Positions 8,466 through 28,640 of a stretch of 48,382 nucleotides of DNA are shown here, piece after piece. The position numbers were made by a program, and so were the translations under genes. Below the pieces are notes generated by a model. It was given only the letters and a program-made list of their open reading frames with translations, was not told the DNA's origin and made no database searches. Source of the stretch: a virus; IMG/VR virus record IMGVR_UViG_3300013131_000067, positions 1-48,382 of that record. The stretch is one strand, 5' to 3'. Position 1 is the first letter of the stretch. The number at the start of each line of letters is the position of its first letter.

Positions 8466-9227
8466 ATGTCAATCACAACTTTATCTGATTATGGAAGTAT
8501 ATTTCAATCAAAGCTTATGAAGTTTTTAATAGAAGATAAGATGTTTTTCTTCAAGCTTCATCCCGTTCTTAGACCGGAATACTTTTCAGATAAAAAGTAT
8601 CGAGATTTACTAAAAGTTATTATAAAGCATTTTGAAACATATTCTGATTTACCTACATACGATGTTTTATCAATATACGCAAATAAAATTGTTGATATTG
8701 ATAGAAAAGATGCGATGATTCGTCTTATTAACGAAGTAAAAATAGAGAGTGGAAATCCGGAGTTTTTTCTAGATGAAGCATTAAAGTTTTGTAAAAGAAA
8801 TGAAATAAAGGAAACTCTAATTGATTCTGTTGATTTTCTTCAAAATGAAGATTACGAAAAAATAGAAGATAGATTAATGTCTTTAATGAAAAAGATCAAT
8901 ATAGATATCAGCGGTCATAATTATTGGGAAAACTTTGATGCTAGAAGCGCCATGACAAGATTTAACATTATTCCCACCGGTTGGGATCCTATTGATGCAA
9001 TAACAAACGGCGGATTGGGAGCTGGAGAGTTGGGAGTTATTGCCGGTGGCCCAGGATTCGGAAAATGTACTTCTAAAAACACCAAAATAGATATTGAAAT
9101 AGAGAAAATTATTATAGAAGATGATAATGGTATGGTGAATGAATATTATCCGTGGGATAATATTAAGCTTCCAAACGGAAATATAAAACTCGCAAAAGAT
9201 ATTGTTAATGAAGATTTTTCACTTTAG
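8466..9227 (+). CDS. Replicative DNA helicase, N-terminal half plus N-intein
   Basis: Residues 1-200 are the N-terminal part of a DnaB/T4 gp41-type helicase: helical N-domain, linker, then TGWDPIDAITNGGLGAGELG and Walker A GGPGFGK. The frame then passes directly into an intein N-half at Cys201 (CTSKNTKIDI...) and stops 53 residues later at TAG. The break falls after the Walker A lysine, so this half cannot be active alone. The partner half is at 10166-11383. Extein Trps are TGG. AGGAG lies 8 nt before the start. Confidence 0.9.
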   Translation: MSITTLSDYGSIFQSKLMKFLIEDKMFFFKLHPVLRPEYFSDKKYRDLLKVIIKHFETYSDLPTYDVLSIYANKIVDIDRKDAMIRLINEVKIESGNPEFFLDEALKFCKRNEIKETLIDSVDFLQNEDYEKIEDRLMSLMKKINIDISGHNYWENFDARSAMTRFNIIPTGWDPIDAITNGGLGAGELGVIAGGPGFGKCTSKNTKIDIEIEKIIIEDDNGMVNEYYPWDNIKLPNGNIKLAKDIVNEDFSL

Positions 9228-9285
9228 TTTTTTCAAAACCCGATCTTTCAAGTATATATTATAATAAAAGAAAGGGAATAAATAT

Positions 9286-10203
9286 ATGAAGAAAAAATCT
9301 TTGTTTGAAATTTGATGCGATAAATATGGAAATGATTTAGCAATAATAAAATGAAACGAGTATATAGAGAAACAAAAAAAATGTAATACAAAAAATACAT
9401 ATATTGAAAAATATGGTGAAGAGATTGGTGAAAAAAAATGAAATGAATTTATAGAAAAAAGTAAACAAACAGAATTAAACATGATAAAAAGATATGGCGA
9501 AGAAACAGGTAAAAAAAAATGAAACGAATATATCCAAAAACATAAGAAAAATCAAACTCTGGAGGGATTAATTTATCATCACGGAAAAGAAAAAGGTGAA
9601 TTAATTTACAACAATAGGGTAAAAAAAATAAAAGAAGCGAATCGTGGTGAATCAAATCCCATGTCGATTCAATCAATTTCAAAACGAATGAATATAACAA
9701 TGGAGGAAGCTAGAAAAAATACGCCATGTTATAATAGAAAAAAAGAAAAACATCCGCTTTATAATAAAAAACTGACGGATGAAACAAAGAAAAAGATATC
9801 TCTCGGGGTTCAGCGATCAAAGCCGTGAGGAAAAAAATGTAAAAAACAACAAAGTAAATGTTACGAAATGGTAAAAAAATTTTTTCCAAACACTATTTGG
9901 GAATGTAGTATAAAAACAGAGACAAAATATAGAAATGTGGATATGTTCATACCAGATTATAATCTAATAATCGAATATTATGGCGATTATTGACATATGA
10001 ACCCTTCACGATTCAATGAAAACGATTATAATAATCATTTACATTTAACCGCAAAAGAAAAATGAGCATATGATGAAAAAAGATTAAATGAATTGCGTCA
10101 AGAAGGTTATGATGTATTTATAATATGAGAATCCGATCTAAAGGAAATTAGCGAGGAGAAACTTTATGAAAGTATTAAAGGTTTTAAGACACGAAAAGAT
10201 TAA
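9286..10203 (+). CDS. Vsr-like homing endonuclease within the split helicase
   Basis: A 305-aa protein between the two helicase halves. The first ~110 residues contain four tandem ~25-aa units of the pattern YGxExGxxKWNEYIxK, a feature of free-standing homing endonucleases. A linker with NPLYNKKLTDETKKKIS (NUMOD3-like) follows. The C-terminal third has DMFIPDYNLIIEYYGDYWH, AKEKWAYDEKRLNEL and DVFIIWESDL, matching the Vsr-like endonuclease fold of the EDxHD type. Eight of nine Trps are TGA. The final 38 nt overlap the start of the C-terminal helicase half. It probably cuts an unoccupied helicase gene to spread the cassette. Confidence 0.85.
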
Positions 10204-11383
10204 TATAAAACAACTTTTTGATAAATTAAATATACGCTTTATAGATGATGAAAAAAATGATGTTATTGTTCAAAACGAATATAATATAAAAGTTTTAACG
10301 ACAATGGGTTATAAACAAATAGAGGCGATGAGACTAGTAAAACCAGAGATCCCAGTCACCTTATATTTAAAAAATAAAAAAACATTAAAAGCATCAAAAG
10401 AACATTTCGTAAAAACGTTAAATAGGAGTTGAGTAAAAATAAAAGATTTGATAAATAATGATCAAATAGAAACAAAAGATGGATTTAGTGCATTTGAAAA
10501 AATAAAAGAACATAAGAAACAAGAGGAGTTATACGATTTTCAGGTAAAAGAAATACATTCATATTTTACAAACGATATTAACAGCCATAATTCTCATTCC
10601 TTAGTCAGTATAGGATGTAATGCAGCTAGAATTGGAAAGAATGTTCTTTACATTTCACTGGAATTATATAGTAATGTTGTTGAAACCAGGTTTGATTCAA
10701 ATTTTACAAACATTGAAAATGATAAAATTAGATTTCACAAAGAGATTGTGAAAAAGAGATTAGAATCATTAAAAAATGAAGGAAAATTTGGTGATATTTT
10801 CGTAAAGTATTTTCCAACAGGTTCAGTAACTGTTCAGCAACTAAAAGCATATGTAAATCAATTAAAAGCAATGGGTTTTAATCCAGATCTTATACTTTTA
10901 GATTATGCCGATATTGTAAAGCCGGGAAGGTTTTATAAGGATGCTCATCGTCTTGAACAAAAAGGTATATATGAAGATCTTCGCGGATGGGCTGGTGAAA
11001 TTGAGAAACCAATTTGAACGGCATCTCAGGCTGGAAAACAAGTTATTGAAAAAGATTGGATTGGCATTGAAGATTTATCTGATTCGTTTGGCAAAGCAAT
11101 GGTTGCGGATCTTATCTTTGGTTTAACAAGAAAGATGGATCAAAGAATAGATAATTCTGGAAAGTTATTTGTTGCAAAAAGTCGAGTCGGAAAAGATGGT
11201 TTCATATTCCCTATCACGATGGATACTGCTTTATCTCTTATTGAGGTTCATGAAACGGATCATGATCAAACAAAAGAAATTCTGAGCGGTACAAGAAAAA
11301 ACGAATCCGGTAGAGTTTCAATGTCAAGTCATAAGAAATCCAAAATGATTGATGATTTAAGAAGCGAATTCGGTATATCATAA
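10166..11383 (+). CDS. C-intein plus replicative DNA helicase C-terminal half
   Basis: Residues 1-142 are the intein C-part. It contains block B (LKASKEHFVKT then WVKIKDLINNDQIET), block F (LYDFQVKEIHSYFTND) and block G ending SHN. The extein resumes at Ser143 with SHSLVSIGCNAARIGKNVLY, so splicing rebuilds GPGFGK-S and a 463-aa helicase (T4 gp41 is 475). Downstream are LDLILLDYAD (Walker B), PIWTASQAG (sensor region, W as TGA) and MDQRIDNSGKLFVAKSRVGKDG. GAGGAG lies 9 nt before the ATG. The C-intein is much longer than usual because the split lies before block B. Confidence 0.9.
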
Positions 11384-25439: not shown

Positions 25440-26690
25440 ATGAATATCTCCTCAAAGATATTATCCGACATTATAATCTACATGAAATATGCTAAATATA
25501 TTCCACAATTCAAAAGAAGAGAAACATGAGATGAAATAGTTACAAGAAATATGGATATGCATATTAAAAAGTTTCCGCAATTAGAAGAAAGAATTAGAAA
25601 ACATTATCAACTTGTTTATGATAAAAAAGTTTTGCCTAGTATGAGAAGTATGCAATTTGCTGGAAAACCGATAGAAATAAGTCCTGCTAGAATTTATAAT
25701 TGTTCATATCTTCCAATAGATGATTATAGAGCATTTTCAGAAATTATGCATTTATTATTATCGGGTGTCGGTTGCGGGCTTTCTGTTCAAAAACATCATG
25801 TAGAACAACTCCCGGAAATTAGAAAACCAAACCCAAATAGACATAAAAGATTTCTTATTGGTGACAGTATAGAAGGATGAGCCGATGCCATTAAAACGTT
25901 AATGAAATCTTATTTCAACGTTAATGGCACCTCCTCTATTATTTTTGATTATTCTGATATCAGACCAAAGGGTGCAAGACTTATTACATCCGGCGGAAAG
26001 GCTCCCGGTCCGCAACCATTAAAAGATTGCATTTATAATATAACAAAAGTATTAGATCAAAAAGAAGATGGAGATAAATTGTCTCCATTAGAGGTGCATG
26101 ATATAATTTGTTTTATAGCTGACGCTGTTTTAAGTGGTGGAATTAGAAGAGCCGCTTTAATTAGCTTTTTTTCGATGAGTGATAATGAAATGTTAGCTTG
26201 CAAGGCTGGAAATTGATGGGAAAAAAATCCCCAAAGAGGAAGAGCAAATAATTCCGTAGTTATTCTTAGACATCGTATTGAAGAAGAAGATTTCAATAAA
26301 CTCTGAGAAAGAATTAGATTAAGTGGTTGCGGCGAGCCGGGAATTATGTTTACTAATGATAAAGAAGTTCTTGGGAATCCTTGTTTGGCTGGAGATACGA
26401 AGGTAGCTACGGAAATTGGCGATATTTCTATAGAAGAATTAGTATCATCGTATGAACAAGAAAAAGAATTACCGAAGATCTTGTCATATAATAAACAAAC
26501 CGGAGAATTAGAATTTTGCGAAATGTCTTGGGGGGCGCTTACAAGAGAACAGGCTGATGTTGTAGAATTAGAATTTGAAGATGGAGAAAATATAACACTA
26601 ACTCCTGATCATGAAGTTTATACAAAAAATAGAGGATATGTAAAAGCATGTAATTTAACCGAAGACGATGAAATTATTTCTATCAAATAA
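25440..26690 (+). CDS. Class II ribonucleotide reductase, N-terminal half plus N-intein
   Basis: Residues 1-314 form the N-terminal part of an adenosylcobalamin-dependent reductase: LPSMRSMQFAG, IYNCSYLPIDD (active-site Cys), GVGCGLSVQKHHVEQLP, DSIEGWADAIK (W as TGA), FDYSDIRPKGARL and CGEPGIMF. It then reads GNP and enters an intein at Cys315 (CLAGDTKVATEIGD). The 102-aa N-intein includes block B with TPDHEVYTKNRGY and ends at TAA. It is close in character to the NrdJ-1 family of split inteins. The partner half is at 27585-28640. Confidence 0.9.
25887..25928 (+). other. Long imperfect hairpin inside the reductase gene
   Basis: Stems GCCATTAA/TTAATGGC (8 bp), CGTT/AACG (4 bp) and GAAAT/ATTTC (5 bp) stack with small one-sided bulges around a CTT loop, giving 17 pairs. 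It lies in ordinary coding sequence; function is unknown. Confidence 0.35.
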
Positions 26691-26700
26691 TTTGGAAAAA

Positions 26701-26749
26701 TTTAGATATTATTCGTATATAAATAATACACGGATTACTAATATCTAAA
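26701..26749 (+). other. Inverted repeat before the reductase-linked endonuclease
   Basis: Perfect 11-bp arms (TTTAGATATTA and TAATATCTAAA) flank 27 nt in the gap between the N-intein stop and the endonuclease gene. The right arm ends one base before the GGAG of the endonuclease, so folding would hide its ribosome binding site. Confidence 0.5.
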
Positions 26750-26763
26750 AGGAGAAATAATAA

Positions 26764-27621
26764 ATGATAGAAATGAAATCCACGATAGATGAAATGGCAT
26801 TAATGGATTTTTTTTACAAACAATTTCAATGACAAAAACAAAAAATAGACATAATAATATGACCAGAATACGAATATAGATTTGATTTGTTTATGAAACA
26901 AAACAAAATACGCAATCCCAATAATGGAATAAAAAAGCGTTTTTTACAACAGATGATAAAAACAGATTATTATGATAATTGATGTAAACTAAAAACTATT
27001 TGCGAAACATTATACCTTGAAGGATATGGTTTTAAATTATTAGCTAGAAAATTTGATGTTAGTTATACCGAAATTAGAACCATATTCAATAATTTAGAGA
27101 TAGAAAAACGACACGGTTTATGCGTTGTGACTAATAAACTCAAAGAAGTTAGAAGTATAAATCTAAAAGAAGCATATAATAAAAGAGAAGGATTTTTCAA
27201 AACTTTTGAAAAAAAAACTAATAAAACTTCTAGGGGAGTGCAAGGATATTATTATAATCAAGGAATGAATAAATTAGTTTGATTGAGAAGTACTTACGAA
27301 TTCATATATGCTAAATGATTAGACAAACAAAAAATAATTTGAGACGTTGAAGTAAAGACTTTTCGACTAAAATCTACTTATTATAGACCGGACTTTTTCT
27401 TGTTTGATGACATCAACAATCTTACTATAAAAAAGATTGTTGAAATAAAAGGATATTGACAAAGAGATGTAAAAAAACTCAGAGAATTACAGCGTGAAAA
27501 TCCTCTAAATTGTGAAGTTTGCATTATATTTGATGTAAAACCTTATATAGAAGAAAATTCTAATTATTCAAAGGAACTAAAAGAATGAAAGAAAAGCAGA
27601 ATATTACTATTAGAAAAATAA
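26764..27621 (+). CDS. PD-(D/E)xK homing endonuclease-like protein in the split reductase
   Basis: 285 aa, between the two reductase halves. A helix-turn-helix-like segment (GFKLLARKFDVSYTEIRTIF) lies around residues 82-105. The C-terminal third has WLRSTYEFIYAKWLD, TYYRPDFFLF and KKIVEIKGYW, which fits a PD...ExK nuclease core. All eight Trps are TGA, unlike the exteins. The last 37 nt overlap the C-terminal reductase half. It differs from the Vsr-like enzyme in the helicase cassette, so the two insertions have separate origins. Confidence 0.78.
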
Positions 27622-28640
27622 AAAAAATTAGTGTTAGAAAAAACAGAGATGTATTTGATATTACGGTTCTCAGAAATCATAACTTTTTTGCTAATAAAAC
27701 GTTGGTATCAAATTGTAACGAAGTCTCGCTTAAGCCATTTCAATTTTGTAATTTGTGTGAAATAAACGCGTCAGACATTGAAAGTCAAGAAGATTTAAAT
27801 GAAAGAGTGGAAGCTGCCGCATTTATTGGAACACTCCAAGCATCTTATACAAACTTTCATTATTTAAGAGATGTTTGGCAAAAAACAACTGAGCGGGATG
27901 CTCTTCTTGGAATAGGAATGACAGGATTAGGTAGTGGTAAATTTTATGATGTTAATTTAGAGGAAGCCGTTCAATTAGCCAAAAAGATAAATAAAGAATT
28001 AGCCAAAGAGATTGGAATAAATAAAGCATCTAGACTTACTGTAATAAAACCTTCGGGTACCGCTAGTGTTCTTCTGGGAACAAGTTCTGGAATTCACGCG
28101 TGGCACAGTGATTATTATATTAGAAGAGTAAGGGTCGGAAAAAACGAAGCGATTTATAATTATCTTTCCAAACAACATCCAGAACTTATAGAAGATGAGT
28201 ATTTCAAACCAGAAACAGATGCAGTTATTGCAGTGCCGCAAAAAGCTCCGAAGAATTCCATTCTAAGGCATGAAAGCGCCTTAGAACTATTAAATAGAAT
28301 AAAGTATATCACCAAACATTGGATTATTCCTGGACATATCAAGGGAGAAAATCACAATAATGTTTCTGCCACCGTTTCTATTCGAGATCATGAATGGGAT
28401 GTAGTTGGAAGATGAATGTGAGATAATAGGAATTATTATAATGGTCTTTCAGTCCTTCCTTACGATGGAGGAACTTATGTTCAAGCTCCGTTTGAAGATT
28501 GCTCAAAAGAAGTATATGAAGAAATGATAAGTCATTTATCGGATATAGATTTATCAAAGATTGTAGAAGAAGAAGATATGACATCCGCAAGAGAAGAAGT
28601 AGCTTGCGCTGGTGGTTTATGTACAATAGATAGGATATAA
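27585..28640 (+). CDS. C-intein plus class II ribonucleotide reductase C-terminal half
   Basis: Residues 1-43 are a C-intein with block F (RDVFDITVLRNHNFFAN) and block G LVSN, then extein Cys44. Splicing gives GNP-CNEVSLKPFQFCNL, the conserved NPC(x)E loop of class II reductases, and a 622-aa enzyme. The rest has LLGIGMTGLGSG, KPSGTASVLLGTSSGIHAWH, GENHNNVSATVSI and a C-terminal redox pair CAGGLC. The penultimate intein residue is Ser rather than the usual His. TGA-coded Trp occurs in VGRWMWDN. Expression depends on its own start inside the endonuclease gene. Confidence 0.9.

What the first reader, a model, noticed from the sequence alone, without database searches (positions are those of the whole stretch)
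8466..11383. Replicative helicase fractured by an intein split at an unusual site
Extein breaks after Walker A Lys (GGPGFGK) and resumes with Ser. The N-intein is only 53 aa and the C-intein 142 aa, with block B on the C side. Most known split inteins split after block B (~100 + ~40), so this belongs with the rare atypical N-short class. Without trans-splicing the phage has no ATPase site in its helicase.
Basis: partly seen in the sequence, partly recalled or inferred. Interest (0 to 1): 0.82.

Follow-up and report, generated by a model that had tools for sequence, protein, structure and literature searches.

The report
Phage helicase split by atypical intein
A phage's DNA-unwinding motor is encoded as two separate halves, cut inside its ATP-binding loop, each carrying part of a self-splicing protein (an intein) expected to stitch the halves together; more than 20 other viral contigs break the intein at the same unusual place, so it is a stable family and not a one-off.

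Summary
The T4-like/DnaB-like replicative helicase is encoded in two ORFs (8466-9227, 10166-11383) that break at Walker A GK|S. They carry a 53-aa N-intein and a 142-aa C-intein, with block B on the C side. A near relative (L001) has the same helicase intact and intein-free, an exact empty site.

Targeted scans found over 20 viral contigs with an intein at the same site. In 21 of 22 split relatives the N-intein is exactly 47 aa, ending in the same motif, with a conserved ~25-residue extension. One relative (L110) is unsplit and reads straight across the break. Its model folds as a HINT domain (pLDDT 88; best PDB match VidaL). Seven relatives lack the endonuclease but are still split.

Natural N-short split inteins are known (15-37 aa; VidaL, PolB16, AceL-, GOS-TerL). 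This is a conserved variant: break before helix alpha1, with a longer IntN. In viral contigs the N-short class is common, not rare. Splicing itself is inferred, not shown.

The parts
8466..9227 (+). Helicase N-half: N-extein (aa 1-200, ending GGPGFGK) plus N-intein; TAG stop; AGGAG upstream
9066..9224 (+). N-intein, 53 aa: Cys1/block A, then extension YYPWD..LPNGNIKLAKDIVNEDFSL conserved in the family
9286..10203 (+). Homing endonuclease-like ORF, 305 aa (8 TGA=Trp): NUMOD3 motif plus Vsr-like catalytic domain
10166..11383 (+). Helicase C-half: C-intein plus C-extein; start overlaps the endonuclease ORF by 38 nt; GAGGAG upstream
10166..10591 (+). C-intein, 142 aa: helix alpha1 region (INIKQLFDKL), block B (LKASKEHF), block F (YDFQVKEIHSYF), block G (INSHN)
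10592..11380 (+). C-extein, starting with Walker A Ser (+1 nucleophile) SHSLVSIG

Best explanation
This is a fractured phage replicative-helicase gene. The two halves are translated separately. The 53-aa N-intein and 142-aa C-intein associate into one HINT domain and trans-splice by the Cys1/Ser+1 route, joining ..GGPGFGK to SHSLV.. and so creating the Walker A motif only after splicing. The Vsr-like endonuclease ORF between the halves is most likely the homing enzyme that cuts intein-free helicase alleles, such as that of L001, at or near the GK|S codons and spreads the whole cassette. Shown by sequence: the break, the intein motifs, the empty-site allele, the conserved break point and the (predicted) HINT fold of an unsplit homologue. 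Inferred: association, splicing, DNA cleavage and homing.
For: Both halves are helicase. Exact empty site in a syntenic relative. Splicing residues intact: Cys1, block B His, block F Asp/His, His-Asn|Ser, invariant in the family C-intein alignment. The C-intein profile hits VidaL 1.4e-13, gp41-1 1.6e-13, NrdJ-1, CatC. 21 of 22 split relatives share the break point with a 47-aa N-intein. Unsplit L110 reads ..AKDIIETDEL-RIEKRVIEQELQIKDLF.. across it and models as a HINT fold, best PDB match VidaL. N- and C-intein distances correlate, r=0.79. The endonuclease model best matches E. coli Vsr and homing enzyme I-Bth0305I. Homologous endonucleases sit in the same gap in most relatives. No Rfam intron in the window.
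Against: No splicing or cleavage was measured. The joined window intein itself could not be modelled under tool rules. The window C-intein is divergent (at most about 38% identity to relatives, long branch) and its Pfam score is below the curated cut-off. Block B has Ser in place of the usual Thr.
Confidence: 0.88

Rival explanations
1. The intein halves are decayed and no longer splice; the phage uses a host or second helicase and the gene is a pseudogene.
For: Window intein is divergent; the record is a fragment, so a second helicase cannot be excluded.
Against: Both exteins stay 75-76% identical to intact L001 over the full length with open frames; catalytic residues kept; the invariant intein Trp is kept, as a TGA codon; Shine-Dalgarno-like sites before N- and C-half.
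Confidence: 0.06
2. An RNA-level event (group I/II intron, frameshift or read-through) joins the halves and the intein resemblance is incidental.
For: Two ORFs with an endonuclease gene between them also occur in intron-borne arrangements (general knowledge).
Against: No Rfam family anywhere in the window; HINT motifs and PDB intein matches in the segments at the break; an unsplit protein-level homologue exists.
Confidence: 0.02
3. The halves associate without ligation and work as a two-piece helicase.
For: Split inteins bind each other before splicing (general knowledge).
Against: Walker A Lys and Ser would be on separate chains with about 195 aa of intein between them; a P-loop intein in RadA is reported to disrupt ATPase function (cited in PMC6195587).
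Confidence: 0.03

Closest known systems
VidaL split intein (PDB 6VGV) and PolB16 OarG intein
   Same: Natural, N-short, broken before helix alpha1 (site S1 after beta2; PMC13014065). VidaL is the best sequence and fold match in the PDB.
   Different: IntN is 15-16 aa there; here 47-53 aa because a conserved ~25-residue extension stays on IntN.
AceL-TerL and GOS-TerL split inteins
   Same: Natural N-short split inteins from phage-type genes; block B on the C fragment.
   Different: IntN 25 and 37 aa (PMC11766414), break after alpha1 (S2; PMC13014065). Here the alpha1 region (INIKQLFDKL) is on IntC.
Fractured genes with split inteins and Vsr-like endonucleases (Dassa et al. 2009; gp41-1, NrdJ-1)
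   Same: Gene broken at a split intein with a free endonuclease ORF between the halves (paper known from memory and citations; not readable here). The window's own RNR genes (25440-28640) are a typical case, joined intein matching NrdJ-1 at 7.8e-25.
   Different: Those inteins break at the canonical endonuclease site (~100+~40 aa); this one near the N terminus.
Mycobacterial DnaBi1 (P-loop, site b)
   Same: Intein in the replicative-helicase P-loop, with the P-loop Ser as +1 residue (PMC6195587).
   Different: Cis-splicing class 3 mini-intein, not split, no endonuclease.
Homing endonuclease I-Bth0305I / Vsr endonuclease
   Same: C-terminal catalytic fold of the ORF between the halves; TIGR00632 vsr 0.0028.
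   Different: Only distantly related (about 16-22% identity in the structural alignments); cutting not shown.

Membership tests
Split (trans-splicing) class 1 intein | Cys/Ser at position 1, block B His, block F and G residues with His-Asn, nucleophile at +1 | tested here: met
   Cys1; LKASKEHF; YDFQVKEIH; SHN|S; invariant columns
Split (trans-splicing) class 1 intein | HINT fold of the joined halves | tested here: inconclusive
   Met for the unsplit homologue L110; the joined window sequence was not foldable under tool rules
Split (trans-splicing) class 1 intein | Exteins are two halves of one conserved protein with intact intein-free homologues | tested here: met
Split (trans-splicing) class 1 intein | Splicing activity in trans | not testable with these tools
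   needs co-expression
Natural N-short (atypical) split intein | Break between blocks A and B, IntN much shorter than IntC | tested here: met
   53/142 aa; 47 aa in 21 of 22 relatives
VidaL/PolB16 (S1) or AceL/GOS-TerL (S2) type | IntN within the reported 15-37 aa, break right after beta2 (S1) or after alpha1 (S2) | tested here: not met
   IntN 47-53 aa; break before alpha1 but after three extra short strands (model residues 20-36); nearest to S1
Fractured gene | Endonuclease ORF between gene halves that carry split-intein parts | tested here: met
   ORF 9286-10203; same in most relatives
Vsr-like (EDxHD / I-Bth0305I) homing endonuclease | Vsr fold with conserved acidic/His residues | tested here: met
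   Invariant D219, E230, H237, D263; fold matches 1vsr, 1cw0, 3r3p with probability 1.00, E 0.003-0.02
Vsr-like (EDxHD / I-Bth0305I) homing endonuclease | Cuts the intein-free helicase allele | not testable with these tools
   inferred from position and the L001 empty site

The most novel reading that the evidence does not exclude
A third natural architecture of N-short split inteins: the break lies at the end of a conserved ~25-residue beta-rich segment inserted between beta2 and alpha1, all of it kept on a 47-aa IntN, implying a docking interface different from VidaL- and AceL-type inteins. It arose when a Vsr-like endonuclease gene invaded this loop, has outlived loss of that gene in several lineages, and has possibly re-fused once (L110).
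Probability: 0.45. Interest if true: 0.62.

Novelty: new variant of a known kind. Interest (0 to 1): 0.5.

Why it matters
Characterised natural N-short split inteins are few, and the literature read here gives IntN of 15-37 aa. A family of more than 20 phage members with one fixed break point, an unsplit homologue, intein-free alleles, and versions with intact, broken or lost endonuclease makes the origin and persistence of intein splitting testable. It also supplies many natural IntN/IntC pairs for protein ligation. The site in the P-loop ties helicase activation to splicing.

Tried and rejected
Single-sequence search for related loci with P0002 found nothing; the helicase alignment A1 and then the C-intein alignment A3 did. 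Rfam: no intron. The N-intein tail was first suspected to be dispensable junk from a broken reading frame; rejected because it is conserved and its end fixed in all 47-aa relatives. Joint MAFFT alignments of N- and C-fragments, and of whole halves, misaligned the C-inteins; replaced by the C-intein plus unsplit L110 alignment. Genome contigs: only distant relatives, notably Izimaplasma L114. Papers by Dassa 2009, the VidaL PNAS paper and Bachmann & Mootz 2015 are not held, so whether VidaL's own host gene is this same helicase site could not be checked.

Full report
CHECK. The helicase is in two ORFs. P0001 (8466-9227) ends GGPGFGK followed by a 53-aa stretch beginning with Cys; P0002 (10166-11383, read with TGA=Trp) has 142 aa ending INSHN and then SHSLVSIG. 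Both match PHROG 19, DnaB-like replicative helicase, over adjoining profile positions. The joined 195 aa match solved inteins NrdJ-1 (1.2e-5) and VidaL (0.011). TGA is sense: 106 TGA and 73 TGG codons in the main ORFs, and every stop is TAA or TAG.

EMPTY SITE. Contig L001 is a relative with the same gene order and the same code. Its helicase is one 462-aa ORF, 75-76% identical to the window exteins, matching P0001 residues 1-200 and P0002 residues 142-404. At DNA level GGA AAG|TCT CAT in L001 corresponds to GGA AAA|TGT...CAT AAT|TCT CAT in the window. The insert thus lies exactly between Walker A Lys and Ser. No second helicase is in the record, but the record is a fragment.

THE ORF BETWEEN. 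9286-10203 encodes 305 aa with a NUMOD3 motif (2e-5), weak similarity to Vsr (0.0028) and similarity to phage homing and Vsr endonucleases. Its model (pLDDT 72 overall; catalytic part about 75-92) best matches E. coli Vsr and homing endonuclease I-Bth0305I. It overlaps the start of the C-half by 38 nt; the same kind of overlap (19-50 nt) recurs in relatives.

THE FAMILY. Among 80 viral-contig helicases fetched with an extein alignment, two (L012, L023) had an intein at the same GK|S site. A scan with the C-intein alignment gave 24 contigs, 22 of them with the intein in this helicase and two in a terminase-like gene. A further scan added L135, L136, L203/L204 and L138. Leaving out duplicate contigs (L092, L107, L204) and the more distant L138, 21 of 22 split relatives have an N-intein of exactly 47 aa with the same end (mostly ..DEL-x); L101 and L102 are near-identical, so independent lineages are fewer. 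The exception is L109 (27 aa). L138 has 66 aa, and the window has 53 because of small insertions. The extension after block A (PWD....G.I.ARDI...DEL) is conserved, so it is part of the intein.

UNSPLIT HOMOLOGUE. L110 has the whole 184-aa intein in one ORF, reading ..AKDIIETDEL-RIEKRVIEQELQIKDLF.. straight across the break. Its model (pLDDT 88, pTM 0.80) is a HINT fold, best PDB match VidaL (4.8e-9), then gp41-1 and Npu DnaB. The break falls in the loop at residues 40-47, after extra short strands (20-22, 27-30, 33-36) and before the strand leading into helix alpha1 (59-65). In a tree of C-inteins L110 groups with split L111 (98/88), inside a supported set of otherwise split members, which suggests re-fusion; branches are long, so this is tentative.

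ENDONUCLEASE TURNOVER. The endonuclease is present in most split relatives, in two ORFs in L099, shortened in L095, and absent from L012, L094, L096, L098, L104, L135 and L136. L098 keeps the same 18-aa stretch before the C-half as L097, where it overlaps the endonuclease end. The split therefore seems to outlive the endonuclease. N- and C-intein distances correlate (r=0.79), as do intein and extein distances (0.65-0.79), so the first correlation alone does not prove coevolution.

MECHANISM. Association of the halves and trans-splicing restore the Walker A motif; the endonuclease most likely homes the cassette into intein-free alleles. The catalytic residues of both machines are conserved. Splicing and cutting are inferred.

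AGAINST THE LITERATURE. Natural N-short split inteins are described with IntN of 15-35 aa, at S1 (VidaL, PolB16) or S2 (AceL- and GOS-TerL) (PMC13014065; PMC10189870; GOS-TerL 37 aa, PMC11766414). The P-loop is a known intein site in mycobacterial DnaB (PMC6195587). Fractured genes with endonucleases are known (Dassa et al. 2009, from citation and memory). So the kind is known; the 47-53 aa IntN with a conserved extension, fixed across this family, is a variant I did not find described in the papers available. N-short fractured genes are common in viral contigs: SbcC-like genes (29 aa), another group of P-loop helicases (32-35 aa, broken after alpha1), terminase (36 aa), and PhoH (26 aa, C-intein VidaL-like at 1e-17).

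Noticed in passing
window 25440-28640: A second fractured gene: adenosylcobalamin-type ribonucleotide reductase in two halves (25440-26690, 27585-28640) with a conventionally broken split intein (~100 + 43 aa; joined intein matches NrdJ-1 at 7.8e-25) and an endonuclease-like ORF (26764-27621) between. One phage thus carries split inteins of both geometries.
   Followed up: partly
window 1-48382: TGA is read as Trp throughout (106 codons in main ORFs), including the invariant Trp of the C-intein and 8 codons of the endonuclease, so the element has resided in a recoded genome.
   Followed up: partly
L009 506-3768 (LR756500.1): PhoH-like gene of a large phage, fractured in the same style: 26-aa N-intein, Vsr-like endonuclease ORF 1455-2747, C-intein matching VidaL at 1e-17.
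   Followed up: partly
L139, L140, L150, L155, L156, L161, L163, L169, L174, L185; unsplit L151, L176: SbcC/Rad50-like genes (named by eye) fractured after a GGK motif with a 29-aa N-intein ending GFLPDELK, some with and some without an endonuclease ORF; two have the intein unsplit.
   Followed up: partly
L145, L148, L158, L160, L167, L187: Other P-loop helicases broken after helix alpha1 (N-intein 32-35 aa) at an equivalent GK|S position: a different split geometry at the same protein site.
   Followed up: partly
L114 1169-4258 (JRFF01000032.1, Izimaplasma HR2): Helicase with an unsplit intein at the same P-loop site, no N-intein extension, and a Vsr-like endonuclease gene directly downstream instead of inside.
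   Followed up: partly
L008 2546-3439 (Salicola phage SCTP-2): Terminase large-subunit piece that begins with a C-intein and ends with another N-intein, suggesting a gene in three pieces.
   Followed up: no
L001 7799-8239: ORF with a GIY-YIG-like motif (RWYIGKR) between the deaminase and DNA polymerase genes, absent at that place in the window; possibly a free-standing homing endonuclease.
   Followed up: no
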